Source of the DNA: a virus
Direction: 5' to 3' (one strand)
DNA length: 36,600 nt
Virus record (IMG/VR): IMGVR_UViG_3300035698_000784
Location: 1 to 36,600 of that record
A program made the translations under genes and the position numbers. This document shows, one piece after another, positions 4,947 to 18,943 of the stretch (positions are counted from its first letter, which is position 1; every line of letters starts with the position of its first letter). The notes under the pieces are model-generated. The model worked only from the letters and a program-made list of their open reading frames with translations, was not told where the DNA came from and ran no database searches.

Positions 4947-5831
4947 ATGCATAAGATTGAGCAATACATTCAAGTACCATTAGAAGACTTAGACAATAGA
5001 ACCGCAGAGGAATTTGACGGTCTAATTGAAGAGTTTGGCGAAAGCTGTAAGAGTGCCTTGAGGGATTGCTTACTAAGCAGTCGTAAGGATGAACCCTTTA
5101 GAGTTCGTATGAGCAATATAGGTAAACCCTTACGGCAGCTTATGCTAGAGAAGAAACATGGACGTTCTCCTATGGATGCGGATATGAAACTCCGTATGAC
5201 CTATGGCTATATCTGGGAGTCCTTACTAGTATTTCTAATAAAGGCAGCAGGATTACCAGTAGAAGATGGCAAAGAAGTTTCCCTAGATATAGTCCATGGG
5301 GAGAATAAGACTAAGGTTAATGGCACTTATGATATTGAGATTGACGGTATGATCTATGATATCAAGTCGGCTAGCCCATGGTCCTTTGATAATAAGTTTA
5401 CTACCTTTGAGGGCTTAGAAGATGATGATCCCTTTGGGTATGTAGGTCAGGGCTTTGGTTACAGCATAGCATCCAAGAAACGTTTTGGTGGCTGGGTTGT
5501 AGTTGATAAATCTGATGGGCGTATCAAAGTAGTAGAGGTTCCACAACTAAATTATAAACAGCTAGCCCAGAAGTACTTAAATATTTTCAGGCATAAGCTA
5601 AATGAGATAGGCTCTGACCATGAGCCACCACCATGTGACGGTGTTATTGATGAGAAGTTCAATAGGAAAGTTACTGGTAATAAAATACTTGCAGGAGGTT
5701 GTAAGTTCTGTGACCATAAGTACAAGTGTCACCCAAAACTACAATTCAAAGAGTGTCTTAATAGTAAAGCCCAGACTAAACCGTACAAACTATACACCCA
5801 CATTGAGGAACCTGAAGTAAATGAAGATTAA
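4947..5831 (+). CDS. Cas4/RecB-like PD-(D/E)XK exonuclease with Fe-S cysteines
   Basis: The 294-residue product has Glu91 (GYIWESL), Asp129 in GTYDIEIDG, and Asp138/Lys140 in YDIKSA. These are the catalytic elements of the PD-(D/E)XK nuclease fold. The C-terminus carries CKFCDHKYKC (Cys252, 255, 261), the CxxCx5C pattern that with an N-terminal Cys (34 or 41) ligates an Fe-S cluster in Cas4/AddB-like nucleases. Such phage enzymes process DNA ends for recombination-dependent replication, or degrade host DNA. The gene overlaps nrdA by 11 bases. The catalytic fold is confident; the Fe-S cluster is inferred from the cysteine pattern. Confidence 0.9.
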   Translation: MHKIEQYIQVPLEDLDNRTAEEFDGLIEEFGESCKSALRDCLLSSRKDEPFRVRMSNIGKPLRQLMLEKKHGRSPMDADMKLRMTYGYIWESLLVFLIKAAGLPVEDGKEVSLDIVHGENKTKVNGTYDIEIDGMIYDIKSASPWSFDNKFTTFEGLEDDDPFGYVGQGFGYSIASKKRFGGWVVVDKSDGRIKVVEVPQLNYKQLAQKYLNIFRHKLNEIGSDHEPPPCDGVIDEKFNRKVTGNKILAGGCKFCDHKYKCHPKLQFKECLNSKAQTKPYKLYTHIEEPEVNED

Positions 5832-7668
5832 AAAAGTATATAAACGTGATGATCTGTTGGACCCATATGCTATAAGCATACTGAAGGATCGTTACATGGT
5901 AGACGGTGAGGAGTCCCCTCAAGATGCTTTCGCAAGGGCCGCAGTAGCCTTTGCGGATGATGAGGCACACGCTCAACGTCTTTATGATTACGTGAGTAAA
6001 CTATGGTTTATGTTTGCAACTCCCGTACTTGCCAATGGCGGTACTAAGAGGGGGTTACCCATTAGTTGCTTCTTGAACTATGTAGGAGACTCACGAAATT
6101 CCATTCTTAAACACTACGAAGAGAATGGATGGCTTGCCTCATCAGGTGGAGGGTTAGGTGGTTACTGGGGTTCTCTTAGAACTTCAGGGACTAAAACTTC
6201 AACTGGTGGAGAGTCAACAGGGATGATACCATTTCTTAAAGTGGTTGATGATATAACCCTAGCGTTCCGTCAAGGTGGAACTCGTAGAGCAGCGTATGCT
6301 GCGTATCTTGACATTGACCATCCTGAGATCATAGAGTTCCTCAACATGAGGAAACCTACAGGTGGTGATGTTAACCGCAAGTGTCTAAACTTACATCATG
6401 GTATCAACATCACTGACAAGTTTATGTCCCTCATTGAGGAATGTACGCTTAACCCAGAGGTGGACGATACATGGGAATTAATTGACCCCCACACAAAGGA
6501 TGTAAGCGAGACTGTATCAGCTAAAGACTTATGGCAAAACATATTGGAACTTCGGGTCCAAACTGGAGAACCATATATCCACTTTATTGATACAACAAAT
6601 AGGTTCCTACCCGACTGTCAAAAGGCTCTAGGACTTAAGGTGCACGGAAGTAACCTTTGTAGTGAAATAGTACTCCCTACAAATGACGAGAGAACAGCCG
6701 TGTGCTGCTTATCATCACTCAACCTTGAAAAGTATGATGAATGGAAGGACACCACTATTGTTCAAGACTTAATAAGAATGCTTGACAATGTGCTAGAGGA
6801 GTTTATTAAGATGCCTCATATGCACCCAAGTGGTAAAGATGCGATTCGTAAAGCTGTCAATTCGGCTGTACGTGAAAGGAGTCTGGGCCTAGGTGCTATG
6901 GGCTTTCATGCTTATCTACAGGCTAATCAGATTCCATTTGAGTCTGAGGAAGCTGTTAAGATAAACAAGGAAATGTTCCAAGGTATACGCACCATGGCTG
7001 AAAGGGAATCAAAACGATTAGGTGTCGAGAAGGGGGTAGCTCCAGACTTCGGTGACACTGACCCTGTGAATGCTAAAAGAAATGTTCACCTTATGGCTAT
7101 TGCTCCCAATGCATCATCCAGTATTATCTGCGGTAATACAAGTCCTTCAATAGAACCATTTAATGGTAATGGCTTTGCTCAGAAGACTGAGAATGGTACT
7201 AACATATATAAGAATAAGTTTCTTGATAAGTTACTATCATCTAAAGGAATCTCTAAAGCTAACCAGACAAACATTTGGAAACAGATTACGTCAAACAATG
7301 GTTCCGTGGAAGATGTTGAGTGTCTCACTGAGGCAGAAAAAGAAGTGTTTAAAACTGCATTTGAGATCAGTCCTTTCTGGATAATTCGTCATGCTGCTGA
7401 TAGGCAGGTGTACATTGATCAAGCACAATCAGTTAATCTATTCTTTAGAAACCCAGTAGACCTCAACACTCTCCACAAAGTACACCTACATGCATGGAAA
7501 AGTAATCTTAAGACACTTTACTATTGTCGTAGTATGAAGTCTAGTCGTACTGAGAATATCGGCACACGCTTCAACAGACATGAGATTACTCCTAAGGAGT
7601 TTAAGCAAACCCAATTTAAAACTGTGTTACCAAATGGAATGGAGATTGGTTGTGTCGGATGTGAGTAA
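5821..7668 (+). CDS. nrdA: class I ribonucleoside-diphosphate reductase, alpha subunit
   Basis: Reduces ribonucleotides to deoxyribonucleotides together with NrdB. The 615-residue protein has Cys83 (PISCFLN) and Cys295/296 as candidate redox cysteines, and NLCSE (Asn278, thiyl-radical Cys280, Glu282) as the active-site triad. YY (567-568) serves radical transfer, and the C-terminal CVGCE (Cys611/614) is re-reduced by thioredoxin or glutaredoxin. No N-terminal ATP-cone is present, so the enzyme should lack dATP feedback shut-off, common in phage RNRs. The start overlaps the nuclease gene. Downstream lie an HNH relic and an nrdB interrupted by an amber codon. Confidence 0.97.
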   Translation: MKIKKVYKRDDLLDPYAISILKDRYMVDGEESPQDAFARAAVAFADDEAHAQRLYDYVSKLWFMFATPVLANGGTKRGLPISCFLNYVGDSRNSILKHYEENGWLASSGGGLGGYWGSLRTSGTKTSTGGESTGMIPFLKVVDDITLAFRQGGTRRAAYAAYLDIDHPEIIEFLNMRKPTGGDVNRKCLNLHHGINITDKFMSLIEECTLNPEVDDTWELIDPHTKDVSETVSAKDLWQNILELRVQTGEPYIHFIDTTNRFLPDCQKALGLKVHGSNLCSEIVLPTNDERTAVCCLSSLNLEKYDEWKDTTIVQDLIRMLDNVLEEFIKMPHMHPSGKDAIRKAVNSAVRERSLGLGAMGFHAYLQANQIPFESEEAVKINKEMFQGIRTMAERESKRLGVEKGVAPDFGDTDPVNAKRNVHLMAIAPNASSSIICGNTSPSIEPFNGNGFAQKTENGTNIYKNKFLDKLLSSKGISKANQTNIWKQITSNNGSVEDVECLTEAEKEVFKTAFEISPFWIIRHAADRQVYIDQAQSVNLFFRNPVDLNTLHKVHLHAWKSNLKTLYYCRSMKSSRTENIGTRFNRHEITPKEFKQTQFKTVLPNGMEIGCVGCE

Positions 7669-7765
7669 TCTGAAACGTTTCTGGGACAAAGTAGATATGG
7701 GTATTATTGATGTATGCTGGGAGTGGCTTGCGGGTAAACATACAAGAATGGCGTATACAAAATAA
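7661..7765 (+). pseudogene. remnant of an HNH homing endonuclease (N-terminal fragment)
   Basis: From a GTG at 7661, overlapping the end of nrdA in another frame, 34 codons encode KRFWDKVD, then CWEWLAG, then a stop. FW-x-KVD followed by CWEW is the characteristic N-terminus of small phage HNH endonucleases, which normally continue for 100-150 more residues to the HNH catalytic motif; none of that follows before nrdB at 7790. The fragment therefore looks like the stump of a deleted free-standing homing endonuclease, a frequent guest of phage RNR genes. The similarity is short, so a chance match cannot be excluded. Confidence 0.6.
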
Positions 7766-7789
7766 TAAAGTTAAATTAGAGAGTTATAA

Positions 7790-8761
7790 ATGAGCTTAAT
7801 TACAAAAAGAAGTAACTACAAGCCTTTTGAATACCCTTGGGCGTACGAAGGGTACAAGAAACAAGCTAAGATGCATTGGATTCCTGAAGAAGTCCCACTA
7901 CATAATGATGTACGGGATTGGCACTAGAAGCTTGATGACTCTGAGCGTAACCTACTGACACAAATCTTTAGGTTCTTCACTCAGGCAGACGTTGATGTAG
8001 CTAAAGGTTACCTTGAGCATTATATCCCAGCCTTCGGGGGCAACCCTGAGGTAGCTATGATGCTGTCAACCTTTGCTTCAATGGAAGCCGTACACATTGA
8101 TGCCTATAGTCTGCTATTAGATACTATTGGTATGCCTGAGACAGAGTACAGTGCCTTCTCCCAGTACAAAGAAATGGCTGATAAACATGAATTTCTTGAA
8201 AGTGTGTCTTCAAACACCCCCAGGGAAATGGCGAAAGCCTTAGCTATCTTCTCAGCATTTGGTGAAGGACTTCAGTTGTTTAGCTCATTTGCTATTCTAT
8301 TGAACTTCCCAAGGATGGGCAAGATGAAAGGTATGGGACAAATTGTGACCTGGAGTATTCTAGACGAGACTGTACACTGCCAATACATGCTACAGCTATT
8401 CAGGGAGTTCCTGTCAGAGAACTATGAAGTATGGGACGATGATCTTAGAGGTGAGATTTATGAAGCCTGTAGGACCATGGTTGACCTTGAAGATCAGTTC
8501 ATTGACTTGGCGTTTGCCCAAGGAGACGTTGAGGGGCTGTCTAAGGATGATGTCAAGTTATACATCCGGTACATTGCTGACCGTAGGCTACTTCAATTAG
8601 GTCTCAAGACTAACTTCAATGTCAAGAAGAACCCTTTACCATGGCTTGAAGAAATGCTCAATAGTACTGAACATGCTAACTTCTTTGAGACTAGAGTAAC
8701 GGAATACGAAAAGAACCCAACAGTAGGAGCAATACAATGGGGAGAGAAACTACATGGCTAA
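7790..8761 (+). CDS. nrdB: class I ribonucleotide reductase beta subunit, interrupted by in-frame TAG
   Basis: From ATG 7790 the frame reads as an NrdB/R2 protein of 323 residues, but codon 46 (7925-7927) is TAG. Before it: MSLITKRSNYKPF to VRDWH; after it: KLDDSERNLLTQIFRFFTQ. The di-iron ligands are Asp67, Glu99, His102, Glu159, Glu193 and His196, and the radical tyrosine is Tyr106 (HIDAY). The next ATG, at 8057 (Met90), would give a 234-residue protein without Asp67, which should be inactive. The function of the locus is certain; whether it is a dead gene, read-through, suppression or a sequence error is open. TAG is a normal stop elsewhere in the window. Confidence 0.92.
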
Positions 8762-10743: not shown

Positions 10744-10752
10744 GGAGGATTT

Positions 10753-11019
10753 ATGCTTAGTAAAACACAGAATATGACTTTTGGTAGGGCCATTGAACAG
10801 CTTAGACTAAATAAGAAAGTTGCCCGTCGGGGGTGGAATGGTAAAGGTATCTTTATTGAACTACAAGTACCAGACGCCAACAGTAAAATGTCTCAACCAT
10901 ATATCTACATTGATACTACGGGTCTTCAGACGGATAACCCGGATGCCCCTAAGTCTCTTGTCCCCTGGTTAGCCTCCCAGACGGACATGTTAGCTGAAGA
11001 CTGGGGGGTTGTAGATTGA
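10753..11019 (+). CDS. DUF2829 protein, Tad2-like anti-Thoeris candidate
   Basis: The 88-residue protein has the whole DUF2829 signature in order: MTFGRAIEQL (8-17), KKVARRGWNGKG (21-32), a QPYIYI strand (48-53), and PWLASQTDMLAEDW (71-84). SPO1 Tad2 belongs to this family; it forms oligomers that sequester the cyclic ADP-ribose-type signal made by Thoeris TIR enzymes, and some relatives also bind cyclic dinucleotides. The gene follows AAGGAGG, is full length for the family, and its TGA overlaps the TTG start of the next gene (TTGA). Family membership is confident; the anti-defence role is inferred from homologues. Confidence 0.88.
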   Translation: MLSKTQNMTFGRAIEQLRLNKKVARRGWNGKGIFIELQVPDANSKMSQPYIYIDTTGLQTDNPDAPKSLVPWLASQTDMLAEDWGVVD

Positions 11020-11330
11020 GCATTGACACAGGCTTCACAAGATACGATACAGGTAAATTAAGATGGTCTCTAATACCTAGGCGTACCCTAAGGGATATTG
11101 TCAAGGTGTTAGAGTTTGGTGCTAAGAAGTACCAACGTGACAATTGGAAAAAGATGGATACTAGTAGTGACTTAGAACGCTGCTGGGATTCATTTGACAG
11201 ACATAGGGATGCCTTCCAGTTAGATGGTGAGACATTTGACAAGGAGACTGGGCTACCCCATACATCCCACATGTTATGCAACATCTTATTTATACACCAC
11301 TTAACCCAATACAAAGATGAGGGAAAATGA
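11016..11330 (+). CDS. dATP/dGTP diphosphohydrolase-like protein (DUF5664-type)
   Basis: The start is a TTG overlapping the previous stop; no usable ATG follows until residue 46, and a run of G lies just upstream. The 104-residue protein shows RYDTGKLRWSLIP, then EFGAKKYQRDNW, a central RH (DSFDRHRDAF), then ETGLPHTSHMLCNILF. This pattern is typical of the phage family named after dATP/dGTP diphosphohydrolase N-terminal domains. The likely role is trimming nucleotide triphosphates to monophosphates to tune the dNTP pool. It overlaps the MazG-like gene by ATGA, so the two are probably co-translated. Catalysis has not been shown for this small form. Confidence 0.75.
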   Translation: MSIDTGFTRYDTGKLRWSLIPRRTLRDIVKVLEFGAKKYQRDNWKKMDTSSDLERCWDSFDRHRDAFQLDGETFDKETGLPHTSHMLCNILFIHHLTQYKDEGK

Positions 11331-11905
11331 CCGAAGCACCACATTTGACTATAGTAAAGCCAGCGCCTATGATTGAGGTGTCGGACCTTACTGAGGTTAT
11401 GAGTGCACAAGAAGATTTCTTTAAGTCTTTTAAAATCGACATAACTAAGGCTACCCAAGAGCTATACATTACGCTCATTGAAGAAGAGCACGAAGAATGG
11501 GTAGAAGAATTTTATGGAGACCCGTCACATGATTTCAACCAACTTAAAGAACTAGTAGACTTACTATATGTAGCTGCCGGGCTATGTGTACAACGTGGGT
11601 ATAAAGTAAAGACCACTAAGGCCTTTATGATCAACGAGTATTATGATCATTCCATTACGGACCTAGTATCCGAAGTAGCCACAGGGGACACCTCTGAGAC
11701 TACCTTAAGGATGCTGATGTATGCTATTTATGGCTATGCAGATTCTAAGGGGTGGGACATTGAGGAAGCTTATAGACGAGTACACCACTCTAATATGAGT
11801 AAGCTTACTGATGATGGAAGTGTCATATACCGAGATGATGGCAAGATACTTAAGAGTGATAACTACAAAGAACCCTATTTGGAGGATTTAACTAATGGAA
11901 AATAA
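11327..11905 (+). CDS. MazG-like / PRA-PH-like NTP pyrophosphohydrolase
   Basis: The 192-residue all-alpha protein has EEEHEEWVEE (51-60) and KELVDLLYVAAG (74-85). These form the EExxE...ExxD magnesium-binding signature of MazG and phosphoribosyl-ATP pyrophosphohydrolase-like enzymes. After this domain a second helical part (about 105-150) repeats a similar bundle without the acidic motif, and the C-terminus is polar. It likely hydrolyses (d)NTPs to monophosphates and pyrophosphate. It sits between the DUF5664-type gene and thyX in the nucleotide cassette. Confidence 0.85.
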   Translation: MTEAPHLTIVKPAPMIEVSDLTEVMSAQEDFFKSFKIDITKATQELYITLIEEEHEEWVEEFYGDPSHDFNQLKELVDLLYVAAGLCVQRGYKVKTTKAFMINEYYDHSITDLVSEVATGDTSETTLRMLMYAIYGYADSKGWDIEEAYRRVHHSNMSKLTDDGSVIYRDDGKILKSDNYKEPYLEDLTNGK

Positions 11906-14088: not shown

Positions 14089-14775
14089 TTAAACCTCCGT
14101 TACTATACTAGGGGCCTCTTTTACTTGAGACAACCGAGATTTCCAGCCTTTGCCGAATTTCCCCCAGTCACTAAGACCCTTGTATAAAGATAAACGCCTT
14201 TTCAATATAGCTTCCCGTGTATCCCCAGCGTCGTAGGAATTGAGAGCATTCAAGGTGTTATTGCCTAACTTGCCATCTACTTTAATAGTGGAGCCTAGGT
14301 CATTTAACGCCCGTTGAATTACTTTAGTCATACCATGTATACCATGATTGACATTACCATCAAACACTAAATCCTGGATTAGCAAAGGGGCCTTGTGGAC
14401 ACCCGCATCATTCCAGTACTTCTGTTTGTATATTCTAATAGCTTCAGCTTCTTTAAGTTCCTTGAGGATACCTTTAGTAGCTTGTGGGTAGAACCCCTGT
14501 AGCGTGAACAGTGTGATACCATACTTAGTAGGTGTCCTACGGCCATTCTCAACGTGTTCAGTGTACTTAGAGCCGCCCTCCAGCCTTAAAGTTCGTGCTA
14601 TGACTATCTCTTGGAGCTTAGAGACTGCTATATTCCTGATGTTAGGGAGGTACTCCTCAAGCAAGCTAGGGGCATACATTTCCTCCTGTACCTGTTCAGT
14701 AACTACAGGTATCTCTGGGGGTATATCCATGAAAAACATTTTAAGCCTATTTAGTAGTTTTCTTAGGTATTCCAT
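14089..14775 (-). CDS. endolysin, GH108-type muramidase with C-terminal peptidoglycan-binding domain
   Basis: The catalytic domain carries LRLEGGSKY (EGG with the likely catalytic Glu), then TKYGIT, AIRIYKQKYWNDAG and DLVFDGNVNHG, typical of the glycosyl hydrolase 108 family. The C-terminal half, with VIQRALNDLG and DGKLGNNTLNAL, matches the small peptidoglycan-binding domain that accompanies it. There is no signal sequence, so it would need the holin to reach the wall. The start is uncertain: ATG 14775 has AGGAG 12 bases upstream, a GTG at 14802 would add nine residues, and all options overlap the upstream gene. Confidence 0.92.
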   Translation of the reverse strand: MEYLRKLLNRLKMFFMDIPPEIPVVTEQVQEEMYAPSLLEEYLPNIRNIAVSKLQEIVIARTLRLEGGSKYTEHVENGRRTPTKYGITLFTLQGFYPQATKGILKELKEAEAIRIYKQKYWNDAGVHKAPLLIQDLVFDGNVNHGIHGMTKVIQRALNDLGSTIKVDGKLGNNTLNALNSYDAGDTREAILKRRLSLYKGLSDWGKFGKGWKSRLSQVKEAPSIVTEV

Positions 14776-17700
14776 CTTTTTCTCTAGCTCCTGTAAATTC
14801 ACCTATTTGTCTTGCAATACCTCTAAGTAACTTGGTCTGTGGCGCGACATCGTATTGGTCTGTCCATATGTCCCCTAAGACATCCTGTTCAAGCTCAAGC
14901 TCATTGAGGGCTTCTTCTTGTATCAATTGGATCTCAAGACGTACTTCATCAATACGTTTACGTAACTCTGGGTCACCTAGTAATTCTTTTTCAGGTGTTG
15001 TCTCAGTTGAAGTGCGTCTATTAGGGGAATTAAGTCTACTCAATTCATCATAATAGTTCTTGATACGCTTTGTAGCAGGTTCAATGATTGTGTCACTTAT
15101 ACGTATAAGGTCACCATGTTTATCTGCATACTCATTAGCTTCCTTGTAGGACGAATCTGAGCCAGTCTTTTCGGCATTAGTTTGTTTCTGTTGAAGTGTC
15201 TGAGTAAATTCTTTTAGGGATGTAGCTATGTTATCAAAGTTGTTTCTAGCCCCACTCTTAGGTACATCTGATTTAAACCCAGGTAAGTCACCAACAAAGG
15301 GTGTCTTTGCTTTATCTATTTGAGGACGTTCCTCACCAGTTATCCGAGCTACTATCATATCTGACATAGCTAAAGCGGCTTCACCCACGTAAGGTAATAA
15401 ATCCTTGAACACGTACTCCGCAATAACAGGGTCTATACCTGTAGCCCTAGCAAATTCTATGGCAGCCTTAGAGGTAACTCCAGGTCTTCCTCTATCTTCC
15501 GCAGCTATCTCACTGTTTAGAAGATATTCAGACTGGATATTACTACCAAACTTACTAGTGTTAGAAGCCGCAGCAACACCAGTATCTATACCTGTAGGCA
15601 GTAGACTTGCGGGTCTTGTTTGACCTACCACGGAATTAGTGGCCATAGATAACAACTGAGGGCCTGTCATACCGCTTTCACGTAAGGCCTTCTGTAATGC
15701 AGGGTTAGCCTTAACAGCTTCTTGGGTGTGCTCATCGGCAAGCGTTAATAATTTTGTGGCGCTAGCTGTGAGGGCCTCATCAATAACTTGTCCACCTACT
15801 TTATTCAGGGGGGCAAACATCTGGAAGGGGCTAGGGACAGGCACATAATCTGACTGCTTAGCCGTAGCAGGGTCTCCATAATATACAATAGTCATACTAT
15901 AGCGTTGCCATGCAGGGAGCTTATCCACAAAGGGTATACCATTCTCATCCACATACTGCTTATTGTGCTGATATATACCTGCTTGAGCTAATGACCCTAA
16001 CGCTACTACTTTAGCAATCTGTTTAGGTCTATACCGTACAGCAGCAAAATCTTTACCCATACCATTCATCATGGACTTCATAAAAGCAGTAGAGGCTTGA
16101 TATTGCCTAAAGCCAGCACTATTACCTGCCTCAGTATATTTAACGGCCAGGGACTTAGCAGCACTTAGAGCACCTTGCTCAGCCTCATCGACAGTCTTAC
16201 CCATCTTGAGGAACTGTTCTTTAACATCCTCATAGTATCTTGCACGAGTTGATAAATCACTTATTTCAGCAAAGTCTTCAAGGGTCTTTACAATTGGCTT
16301 AGCAGATTTACCATTAACCCAACTTGCAGCCTTTTTAATATCCCCAACTTCATCATAGAGGTATTTACTTTTAGCTATCTTAGCACTTAAGTCTTCCCCA
16401 CGCTTCATCATGGTGCCTTTTTCAAGTAGGCCTGGGGATATATTTTGTATCTTAGCTCTATACTCAGGGTCACTGAATAGCTTCTTAGTCACCTTTAATT
16501 GCTTGTCAAGTCTGAATAAGTTTTTATTACCTACAAGTTTAGCATCAGCAGTATAAGCGTAGCCTAAGCCCTCTTTGACCCACGACTTAGCCGAGAAGAC
16601 AAAGTTGAGGGTTGTAGCTAATTCACGGCGTACTTGAGCAGCTTTCATAAAGCCATCACCTAGTTTGCCGCCTTTAGTTGCAGCGTTTAGGTATGGTCTT
16701 GTGATTGTCTTCATCATCTCAGGGTCCGTCACCGTAAGCTTAAGTCGTGTTCCATCTATAAAGACTGATACATTACCAATTTCTCCGCCTTCCCTTAGTT
16801 CACCTGCAAGAGGTGTGATGTCTTTGGACTCAATCATTTTAGGGGACTTGTCAGACTTAGCTCTTTTAATGGCAGCTAGTACATCTGATTTACTTTCCCT
16901 AAAGATGGCATTAAAGCCTGCTTCATCGGTGTGTTCTAATAAATAATCTAATACTGCTACACGATCTCTATTTACCTGAGCAACCCTAACAACACCTTCC
17001 ATGTCCTTTAGGGTGTTCTCTACTGGGTCACCAGTGAAATCTCTGTCACTCCCTGTACGAGCTTTAAGGGCTGTATTAGGTTGCGATGTACCACCACTAA
17101 AGTCTTTATCTAGGTCATAAGTTTCTAACTCACGTTTAGATGATAAGTAATACGGACGACCAGTCTTAAGGTTTTTAGCTTCTGCCTTAGATATTAAGTT
17201 GGCACTCACCCGCACATCAATAAGATGTTGAGATAACTTACTCATGTTCTCTAGGTACTTAGCTTTATCTGGGTCAGCCTTAGCAGCATCAAAGATAGCT
17301 TGAGCCTCTTCTTTAGACATAGCTACGCGCTCACCCCCACGGTTTACGTAGGCTTGGTAAGTTGGTTTGCCTGCTTGTAAGTCGTCAAGCTTACCTTGAG
17401 CCGTATTAAATTCACCAGCAGTCTCGGCAGCGTCAGCCTTAGTGGTTAACTTAGCTTGATTAGTGGCATTTAAGGCATAATCATCAAGGGCGTTGGCAGC
17501 TAATGATATTTCATTGGTATCTTCAATAGATATACCAGCTTCCCTAGCTTCTCTTTGGATGCGTACGTAAGGTTTAACCTGTGTATCAGCCACTAGGCGA
17601 CCTTTAGCTGGGTCCCATTTCTTAATATACGTAGCGGCACCATCTTCGGCACCAATAATACCTACACTCTCATTCTTTAGGTTTACCCCACGCTCATTCT

Positions 17701-18943
17701 TGATACGAGCAAGTGCTATATCCCCTATGGTGTTATCCCCAGAGAAATATACGTCTCCATTCTTCTTCGAGTACGCCCTTGAGATAGCCTGTAGAGGGGC
17801 TAATTCATTAGTGTAATTATTACGTACCCTAGTAAGCTTAGAGCCTAGTATTTTGGTAACTTCATCCCCAGTTAGGGCAGTTCCAGTATCACTTGTGGCT
17901 CTTTTACTAGCACCTAGTACATCCTTAGTGTCCTCTGCTACTAGAGCACCAGTTTGGGCACCTACAAGGGCTGTATCAGATTCATTTAGGGTAGGGTCAT
18001 ACTTCTTAAATATCCTCTCAATAGCATCATCAACTTGTGACTCTGATAGAGTTTTAGATAAGTTAGTACGTATAGCCGCCTCTACTTGATGCGCTGGTAC
18101 ACCTTTCTCTAGTGCTTCTACAGCCACTCCATCTACGAGGTCTTTTGATTTAGCTTCAACAACCTTAGACAAGTCTGTAAAGTGCGCATCAGTTCCGGGA
18201 ATGTTATTTTGGAGTTTCTTTATATCTTCAGCAACCCCCATAAGAGGCTCTTGAACTTCATCTACCTTCGTAGCTATATCACGGATAGCTTTAGATTTAC
18301 CTATAACACGAGCCGTCTTAGCAGCCCCCATAGGAGCTATCATAGCCCCAGCTACATCTAGCTGACCAGCAGGGGTCCCTGTCTGTCTCTCTAGGAAGTT
18401 GTTACCCGCCATAATAGGTCCCATAACCATAGACCCACCAGCTTGAGCTACACCAATAGCTCTACTAGCACCCCCTTTAAGGGTACTCATAACAGTTTCT
18501 CGGAAGGTCATGTTAGGCTTTTCAGGTTCTTGGTCCATACCAAGCATACCTTCAACACCTTCTTTAGCCTCTGATTTGGCGTACTCCCAAGCTTCTCCAG
18601 GAAATCTTAGTATTGAATCTACTAAAGGTTCATCTCCATCTGTACGTCTTTGAGCATCACTATTGGCTTTGCGTTGAACACGTTCTTCCTCCGTAAGTTG
18701 TCTAGGTATACGAGAGTCTTGAGGTACTTTAGGGCTTGTGTCTTTACTAGCTTCTGGTGCAGGAGTCGGGGCAGTTACAACTTCTTGTGGCACATCAGGA
18801 TTTTGGGTATGGGGACCCTCAAAGATGTCTTTTACTTGACTATCAGGTTGACTATTTAGGTGATTATATATTTCATCAATCTGTTCAGGGGTTGTGCCTT
18901 CATCCACCTCTACAGTGACACCATTATCAAATTCAATTTCCAT
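14747..18943 (-). CDS. large internal virion / DNA-ejection protein (1,398 aa)
   Basis: The largest gene in the window; its start overlaps the previous stop (TAATG). The first 150 residues are Pro/Glu/Gln-rich and low complexity. Next come a Gly/Ala-rich segment with glycine-zipper features (about 155-215) and long helical regions. A C-terminal third shows ATTLNFVFSAKSWVKEG and SDLSTRARYYEDVKEQF, with AEQGALSAAKSLAVKYTEAG downstream. This last part resembles the LPD38-type segment common in very large podovirus internal virion proteins. Such proteins are ejected with the DNA and build the periplasmic conduit. I see no lysozyme-type catalytic motif. The function is inferred from size, position and helical content. 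Confidence 0.75.
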   Translation of the reverse strand: MEIEFDNGVTVEVDEGTTPEQIDEIYNHLNSQPDSQVKDIFEGPHTQNPDVPQEVVTAPTPAPEASKDTSPKVPQDSRIPRQLTEEERVQRKANSDAQRRTDGDEPLVDSILRFPGEAWEYAKSEAKEGVEGMLGMDQEPEKPNMTFRETVMSTLKGGASRAIGVAQAGGSMVMGPIMAGNNFLERQTGTPAGQLDVAGAMIAPMGAAKTARVIGKSKAIRDIATKVDEVQEPLMGVAEDIKKLQNNIPGTDAHFTDLSKVVEAKSKDLVDGVAVEALEKGVPAHQVEAAIRTNLSKTLSESQVDDAIERIFKKYDPTLNESDTALVGAQTGALVAEDTKDVLGASKRATSDTGTALTGDEVTKILGSKLTRVRNNYTNELAPLQAISRAYSKKNGDVYFSGDNTIGDIALARIKNERGVNLKNESVGIIGAEDGAATYIKKWDPAKGRLVADTQVKPYVRIQREAREAGISIEDTNEISLAANALDDYALNATNQAKLTTKADAAETAGEFNTAQGKLDDLQAGKPTYQAYVNRGGERVAMSKEEAQAIFDAAKADPDKAKYLENMSKLSQHLIDVRVSANLISKAEAKNLKTGRPYYLSSKRELETYDLDKDFSGGTSQPNTALKARTGSDRDFTGDPVENTLKDMEGVVRVAQVNRDRVAVLDYLLEHTDEAGFNAIFRESKSDVLAAIKRAKSDKSPKMIESKDITPLAGELREGGEIGNVSVFIDGTRLKLTVTDPEMMKTITRPYLNAATKGGKLGDGFMKAAQVRRELATTLNFVFSAKSWVKEGLGYAYTADAKLVGNKNLFRLDKQLKVTKKLFSDPEYRAKIQNISPGLLEKGTMMKRGEDLSAKIAKSKYLYDEVGDIKKAASWVNGKSAKPIVKTLEDFAEISDLSTRARYYEDVKEQFLKMGKTVDEAEQGALSAAKSLAVKYTEAGNSAGFRQYQASTAFMKSMMNGMGKDFAAVRYRPKQIAKVVALGSLAQAGIYQHNKQYVDENGIPFVDKLPAWQRYSMTIVYYGDPATAKQSDYVPVPSPFQMFAPLNKVGGQVIDEALTASATKLLTLADEHTQEAVKANPALQKALRESGMTGPQLLSMATNSVVGQTRPASLLPTGIDTGVAAASNTSKFGSNIQSEYLLNSEIAAEDRGRPGVTSKAAIEFARATGIDPVIAEYVFKDLLPYVGEAALAMSDMIVARITGEERPQIDKAKTPFVGDLPGFKSDVPKSGARNNFDNIATSLKEFTQTLQQKQTNAEKTGSDSSYKEANEYADKHGDLIRISDTIIEPATKRIKNYYDELSRLNSPNRRTSTETTPEKELLGDPELRKRIDEVRLEIQLIQEEALNELELEQDVLGDIWTDQYDVAPQTKLLRGIARQIGEFTGAREKDGIPKKTTK

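What the first reader, a model, noticed from the sequence alone, without database searches (positions are those of the whole stretch)
10753..11019. Tad2-like (DUF2829) anti-Thoeris gene embedded in the nucleotide cassette
Seen: the full DUF2829 signature (VARRGWNGKG; PWLASQTDMLAEDW) in 88 codons. Established: SPO1 Tad2 belongs to DUF2829 and sequesters the cyclic ADPR-type signal made by Thoeris ThsB; some relatives bind cyclic dinucleotides as well. Inference: this podovirus carries a signal sponge against TIR- or CBASS-type defence. It is translationally coupled (TTGA) to a nucleotide pyrophosphohydrolase-like gene, which suggests a unit handling nucleotides generally.
Basis: partly seen in the sequence, partly recalled or inferred. 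Interest (0 to 1): 0.75.

Follow-up and report, generated by a model that had tools for sequence, protein, structure and literature searches.

The report
Tad2-family signal-sponge gene in phage
A virus of bacteria carries a small gene of a known family that soaks up bacterial alarm molecules; this copy belongs to a widespread branch of the family whose exact target has not been tested.

Summary
In detail: window 10753-11019 (+) encodes an 88-residue protein with a full-length match to Pfam PF11195 Tad2-like (E 8.9e-23). A confident model (pLDDT 88) matches all four solved Tad2 proteins (SPO1, Myroides, SptTad2, HgmTad2/AcrIIA7) at Z 9.9-11.3; the next fold scores 5.8. The best reading is an anti-defence signal sponge. 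(1) The CBASS half is disfavoured: the stretch that carries the cyclic-dinucleotide site in HgmTad2 and SptTad2 is minimal here (24 residues against 48-54), and even SPO1 Tad2 (37) did not bind 3'3'-cGAMP. (2) The ligand cannot be carried over: this protein has a 15-residue turn before PWLASQTD, where the four solved proteins have 6-7. The long turn occurs in nearly all of its 80 closest IMG/VR relatives. (3) The link to nucleotide genes is local: 1 of 80 relatives has the pyrophosphohydrolase within 5 kb, and the nearest phage relative carries a DUF3310 gene in this slot. Two relatives lie beside an Acb2/Tad1-family gene and one beside a type II Thoeris operon, which favours anti-defence. New member of a known kind; open: what the long-turn branch binds.

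The parts
10744..10748 (+). Shine-Dalgarno GGAGG of the Tad2-like gene
   Evidence: read from the sequence
10753..11019 (+). Tad2-like (PF11195, formerly DUF2829) gene, 88 aa, long-turn class
   Evidence: Pfam E 8.9e-23; PDB sequence matches; AlphaFold2 model and fold search
10825..10848 (+). RRGWNGKG, residues 25-32, loop beta1-beta2; R25, G27, W28, N29, G30 invariant in 59 sequences
   Evidence: strand positions; described as a pocket loop in the review PMC12043709
10918..10962 (+). 15-residue turn (residues 56-70) between model strands 50-54 and 69-71; 6-7 residues in the four solved Tad2 proteins
10963..11004 (+). PWLASQTDMLAEDW, residues 71-84; P71, W72, S75, Q76, T77, D78, L80, D83, W84 invariant in 59 sequences
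11016..11330 (+). neighbour: dATP/dGTP diphosphohydrolase N-terminal family protein (PF18909), TTG start, TTGA overlap
   Evidence: context, not claimed as a functional partner
11327..11905 (+). neighbour: MazG/PRA-PH-like pyrophosphohydrolase, kept in the nearest phage relative
10477..10743 (+). neighbour: 88-aa unknown protein, the other border of the variable slot (35% identical in relative G001)

Best explanation
The gene encodes a Tad2-family sponge. The phage makes it after entry. It assembles with copies of itself and holds a nucleotide alarm molecule made by a host TIR-domain (Thoeris-type) defence, so that the effector is not switched on. Shown here: sequence family, fold, conservation of the two motif regions that the literature places at the pocket, and absence of the insertion that holds cyclic dinucleotides in other members. 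Inferred from the family: tetramer, pocket, binding without cleavage, anti-Thoeris effect. The ligand is open; an ADP-ribose-type signal (1''-2'/1''-3' gcADPR or His-ADPR) is more likely than a cyclic dinucleotide. The slot next to the nucleotide genes is an accessory place, not a sign that the protein works on nucleotide pools.
For: PF11195 match over the full profile. PDB sequence relatives are Tad2/AcrIIA7 only, at E 1e-10 to 6e-13; the rest of the list is at chance level, E 0.6-0.7. AlphaFold2 pLDDT 88.4, pTM 0.75. All 24 Foldseek matches with E <= 0.001 are Tad2/AcrIIA7 chains. VIA Z is 9.9-11.3 for ten Tad2 entries, next 5.8. 17 invariant columns cluster in GWNG and PWxxSQTDxLxxDW. Relatives of the same class lie beside an Acb2/Tad1-hairpin gene (L027, ATGA overlap, E 2.6e-25; L056, about 0.5 kb downstream) and 2.2 kb from a ThsA_Macro + ThsB_TIR operon (L160).
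Against: No member of the long-turn class has a solved structure in the PDB set searched. The turn that differs lies next to the conserved motif, so the pocket may differ. Thoeris genes are not more common in genomes with long-turn copies than in genomes with other Tad2 copies (8 of 25 against 10 of 25, my tally). The host is unknown, so no target system can be named. The three associations with anti-defence or Thoeris genes are single cases (2 of 80 records; 1 of 50 genomes).
Confidence: 0.62

Rival explanations
1. It is a sponge of the same fold that catches another signal than those known for Tad2, because the long turn and the short beta2 segment reshape the pocket. Works like Tad2, against a different TIR or nucleotide-signal system.
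For: Turn of 15 residues in 78 of 80 viral relatives, against 6 in SPO1-type and 6-7 in the four solved proteins. The turn and strand block (SKMTxPYIYIDTTGLQTDNPDAPKS) is strongly conserved in phages with otherwise unrelated neighbourhoods.
Against: GWNGK and SQTDxLAEDW are as in HgmTad2 and SptTad2. Sequence alone cannot place the turn in or out of the pocket. Conservation could also reflect tetramer contacts.
Confidence: 0.2
2. It binds cyclic dinucleotides and blocks CBASS.
For: HgmTad2 and SptTad2, which bind cGG (PDB titles), are the closest solved relatives by sequence. Two class members lie beside an Acb2/Tad1-family gene.
Against: The stretch that holds the dinucleotide site is 24 residues here, 54 in HgmTad2 and 48 in SptTad2. 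SPO1 Tad2, with 37, did not bind 3'3'-cGAMP (PMC11722364). SMODS enzymes occur in 1 of 25 genomes with long-turn copies, against 17 of 199 Bacillota (my tally).
Confidence: 0.06
3. It is a housekeeping partner of the neighbouring pyrophosphohydrolases or of dNTP metabolism, not an anti-defence gene.
For: TTGA overlap with the dGTP diphosphohydrolase-like gene. In Acinetobacter phage XC38 a short-turn relative overlaps nrdB in a ThyX-nrdA-nrdB block.
Against: Only 1 of 80 relatives has the dGTP gene within 5 kb. None of the top 25 families of 147 flanking proteins is a nucleotide enzyme, apart from one DUF3310 (families below the top 25 were not shown). G001 keeps the MazG-like gene without this gene.
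Confidence: 0.07
4. It is an anti-CRISPR like AcrIIA7, the name under which HgmTad2 is also deposited.
For: PDB entry names 'Inhibitor of Type II CRISPR-Cas system' and AcrIIA7 among the hits.
Against: The same HgmTad2/AcrIIA7 proteins are solved with cADPR and cGG bound, so the sponge role explains the family better. No Cas9 target is known here.
Confidence: 0.05

Closest known systems
SPO1 Tad2 (Gp34.65; PDB 8sme, 8smf, 8smg, 8wje)
   Same: Fold (Z 10.7-11.2), both motif regions, no dinucleotide-binding insertion of the HgmTad2/SptTad2 size
   Different: 39-42% identity in the structural alignment; beta2-to-T segment 37 against 24 residues; turn 6 against 15 residues
Myroides odoratus prophage Tad2 (PDB 8v3e; 9eib with His-ADPR)
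   Same: Fold (Z 11.1-11.2), GWNGKG and LAEDW
   Different: TPSVSDILAEDW in place of LASQTDMLAEDW; segment 37, turn 6 (counted by hand)
HgmTad2 / AcrIIA7 (PDB 8kbi, 8kbj, 8kbk, 9kzr) and SptTad2 (PDB 8wjd)
   Same: Nearly the same motifs (RKGWNGKG or RQGWNGKG; WLASQTDM), fold Z 9.9-11.3
   Different: Long insertion that binds cyclic dinucleotides (54 and 48 residues against 24); turn 7 against 15 (counted by hand)
Tad2-like proteins of the long-turn class in IMG/VR phages and prophages (L002-L081; 26 of 78 genome loci)
   Same: 60-82% identity, same 15-residue turn and SKM-PYIYI block (IMG/VR set)
   Different: Other phage backbones and neighbourhoods; no tested member known to me or found in the searches

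Membership tests
Tad2 (PF11195, Thoeris anti-defence 2) | Sequence family above the curated cut-off | tested here: met
   81.1 bits against 25, profile 1-73 of 73
Tad2 (PF11195, Thoeris anti-defence 2) | Tad2 fold | tested here: met
   Z 9.9-11.3 to ten Tad2 entries, next 5.8; 24 of 24 Foldseek matches with E <= 0.001
Tad2 (PF11195, Thoeris anti-defence 2) | Conserved loops that line the pocket (beta1-beta2 GWNGK; segment before and in the last helix, SQTDxLAEDW) | tested here: met
   Invariant columns in 59 sequences. Loop assignment is from the review PMC12043709 set against model strands
Tad2 (PF11195, Thoeris anti-defence 2) | Individual ligand-contact residues of SPO1 Tad2 | tested here: inconclusive
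   The structure papers are not held and coordinates could not be read. The neighbouring turn differs in length (15 against 6)
Tad2 (PF11195, Thoeris anti-defence 2) | Homotetramer | not testable with these tools
   Only single-chain prediction is offered
Tad2 (PF11195, Thoeris anti-defence 2) | Binds gcADPR or His-ADPR and blocks Thoeris | not testable with these tools
   Needs protein and phage assays
Dinucleotide-binding Tad2 (HgmTad2/SptTad2 type, anti-CBASS) | Long insertion after beta2 that holds cyclic dinucleotides | tested here: not met
   24 residues against 54 and 48
AcrIIA7 anti-CRISPR | Inhibits Cas9 | not testable with these tools
   Only sequence and fold similarity

The most novel reading that the evidence does not exclude
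The long-turn branch of Tad2-like proteins, to which this gene belongs and which is common in phages of very different hosts, has a remodelled pocket and catches a TIR-made or other nucleotide signal that is not yet known as a Tad2 ligand.
Probability: 0.2. Interest if true: 0.65.

Novelty: new member of a known kind. Interest (0 to 1): 0.3.

Why it matters
Tad2-like genes are one way in which phages silence nucleotide-signalled immunity. This one shows that the name does not tell the ligand: the family splits into length classes at two segments around the pocket, and the class common in metagenomes has no solved member. It gives a clear set of proteins to test for ligand range. It also warns against reading a Tad2-like gene beside nucleotide genes as a metabolic unit.

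Tried and rejected
Nucleotide-unit idea: BLASTP of 24 window proteins against ORFs of the 80 closest Tad2 loci gave the dGTP gene in 1 of 80 and no MazG-like, RNR or ThyX gene. PHROGs and Pfam scans of 147 flanking proteins (of 153 called; the six from L068, L077 and L081, taken as near-copies of L067, L076 and L080, were left out) show terminase, scaffold, methyltransferase and GroEL at the top; only the 25 commonest families were shown.

Defence co-occurrence: ThsB_TIR in 18 of 50 genomes with Tad2-like genes (50 of the 80 loci were used) against 17 of 199 Bacillota looked like enrichment. The 50 come from many phyla. Four of the hits are Levilactobacillus, where 34 of 35 genomes have ThsB_TIR while 11 of 35 have a Tad2-like gene. 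Long-turn carriers (8 of 25) do not differ from the rest (10 of 25; this rest includes L156, L161 and L175, which the script did not class). SMODS: 5 of 50 against 17 of 199. ThsA_Macro: 2 of 50 against 2 of 199. I draw no conclusion from these; I ran no background for other phyla.

Tad2 in the phage's own group: 0 of 24 related records have PF11195, but many are fragments.

Clade test: with full sequences the long-turn proteins fall into one clade (95 long plus L036, which also has the long turn; support 0.805). With the turn columns removed the best clade holds 82 long and 5 short, and with the whole middle reduced 87 long and 7 short, out of 96 and 51. So the separation rests partly on the turn itself.

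Total GWNG-to-PW spacing as a class mark was dropped: it mixes two segments that vary independently. PADLOC gave no match for this protein or for the two genes after it. Megablast of the 5-kb region gave no phage record.

Full report
What is there. Window 10753-11019 (+) is an 88-codon gene with GGAGG at 10744-10748. It matches Pfam PF11195 'Tad2-like' over the whole profile, 81.1 bits against a cut-off of 25. In PHROGs its best matches are two families without a named function (phrog_872, E 1.7e-22; phrog_1048, E 4e-20). The gene start after it, TTG 11016, shares TTGA with the stop codon. That gene is of the dGTP_diPhyd_N family; next come a MazG/PRA-PH-like gene, an unknown gene and ThyX. 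RNR subunits lie at 5821-8761. GC content is ordinary for the cluster (0.446 against 0.39-0.46).

The phage. The window is a linear IMG/VR record of 36,600 bases. Its portal is 43-47% identical to Roseobacter CRP phages, HMO-2011 and pelagiphages, and 40% to Rhizobium phages. HMO-2011-type packaging modules are known to be combined with different replication modules (PMC8528129, passages). The host is not known. In G001, the nearest relative found (51 kb; TerL 67%, portal 68%, MCP 80%, DNA polymerase 62%), the order metallophosphatase, 10477-like gene, MazG-like gene is kept, but the place of tad2 plus the dGTP gene is taken by a 106-aa DUF3310 protein (E 4.4e-13). tad2, the dGTP gene, RNR, ThyX and the RusA-like gene gave no match there. 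None of 24 related records has PF11195; many are fragments. So tad2 sits in a slot whose content changes between relatives.

Fold. An AlphaFold2 model from 59 sequences (window plus 58 of the 80 viral relatives) has pLDDT 88.4 and pTM 0.75. Foldseek gives 24 matches at E <= 0.001, all of them SPO1 Tad2, Myroides Tad2, SptTad2 or HgmTad2/AcrIIA7. VIA-align gives Z 9.9-11.3 for ten such entries, then 5.8 for a phage neck protein. By sequence the same proteins are found at E 1e-10 to 6e-13, and at 1e-12 to 2e-18 with a profile.

What differs. I measured two segments: A, from GWNG to the T that ends the strand before the last hairpin, and B, from that T to the residue before the xW of the PWLASQTD motif. 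The window has A = 24 and B = 15. SPO1L3 Tad2 (L109) has 37 and 6. Counted by hand from the printed PDB alignments, Myroides Tad2 has 37 and 6, SptTad2 48 and 7, HgmTad2 54 and 7 (in the last two another residue stands in the place of the T). Of the 80 viral relatives, 78 have B = 15; one has 20 and one was parsed as 10. Of 78 genome loci with a profile hit, 26 are of the long-turn kind; the others with a readable turn have B = 6, apart from L155 (12) and a few with other turns. The review PMC12043709 (passages) places the gcADPR pocket at loops beta1-beta2, beta3-beta4 and beta4-alpha3, strand beta4 and helix alpha3, and says that cyclic dinucleotides are held by an insertion between beta2 and beta5. 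SPO1 Tad2 did not bind 3'3'-cGAMP in a gel assay (PMC11722364, passages). The window protein therefore lacks the dinucleotide insertion and has an extended turn just before the conserved motif. I could not read coordinates, so whether the turn enters the pocket is not shown.

Related loci. The 80 closest relatives lie in unrelated phages. Besides Tad2 hits, BLASTP of window proteins found only a dGTP gene once, TerL six times, portal twice, MCP four times and DNA polymerase once (counts without the window's own locus). Some relatives lie beside anti-defence or defence genes. In L027 an Acb2/Tad1-hairpin gene (PF24729, E 2.6e-25) overlaps the tad2 stop as ATGA. In L056 a broken Acb2/Tad1-hairpin gene lies about 0.5 kb downstream. 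These are 2 of 80 records; 0 of 20 other phage records searched had one. In the Levilactobacillus brevis locus L160, a ThsA_Macro gene (E 4.9e-52) and a ThsB_TIR gene (E 1e-17) end 2.2 kb before a long-turn Tad2-like gene with an extra C-terminal part, which is followed by a terminase small subunit gene. ThsA_Macro is rare (2 of 199 Bacillota, 2 of 50 genomes). These single cases fit an anti-Thoeris role but do not prove it.

Literature seen. Passages of PMC12043709, PMC13299392 (a Sinorhizobium podovirus with a Tad2-like protein; Myroides Tad2 binds His-ADPR, SPO1 Tad2 gcADPR), PMC11722364, PMC12657218 (four Tad2 proteins tested with Panoptes, slight effect of SptTad2) and PMC8528129; outline with abstract and one section of PMC13232231 (phage RyR-domain proteins, another way to remove ADPR signals). 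The original Tad2 structure papers were not held, so I know their content only from recall and from PDB titles. A search for HMO-2011 with anti-defense found no paper. Searches for Tad2 with Thoeris and for DUF2829 listed 10 and 8 papers; apart from those named above I saw only listings and abstract starts.

Conclusion. The gene is a Tad2-family member and most likely a signal sponge against a TIR-type defence. The CBASS reading is unlikely, the metabolic-unit reading is weak, and the ligand of the long-turn class is open.

Noticed in passing
L160 2457-6594 (Levilactobacillus brevis ATCC 14869): A type II Thoeris pair (ThsA_Macro, ThsB_TIR) 2.2 kb upstream of a Tad2-like gene with an extra C-terminal part of about 100 residues, just before a terminase small subunit gene: a prophage region that may carry both a defence and its antidote.
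   Followed up: partly
L027 5002-5446: A long-turn Tad2-like gene overlaps (ATGA) an Acb2/Tad1-hairpin gene: two sponge families in one small operon.
   Followed up: partly
G001 (L128 5558-5878, - strand) against window 10753-11330: The slot between the 10477-like gene and the MazG-like gene holds DUF3310 in the relative and tad2 plus a dGTP diphosphohydrolase-like gene here.
   Followed up: yes
Levilactobacillus, 35 genomes: ThsB_TIR matches in 34 of 35 genomes, so near-universal in the genus; function there not examined.
   Followed up: no
window 11016-11330: The dGTP diphosphohydrolase-like protein also matches PHROGs labelled 'endolysin; inhibits RNA polymerase' (E 3.5e-18 and 4.2e-16), probably a mislabelled or mixed family.
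   Followed up: no
MN508356 (L108 1070-5234): In Acinetobacter phage XC38 a short-turn Tad2-like gene overlaps nrdB in a ThyX-nrdA-nrdB block: an independent case of such a gene next to nucleotide genes.
   Followed up: partly
window 14747-18943 (-): A 1398-aa protein with a large polyvalent-protein domain (LPD38, E 4.2e-9), in the structural gene block.
   Followed up: no
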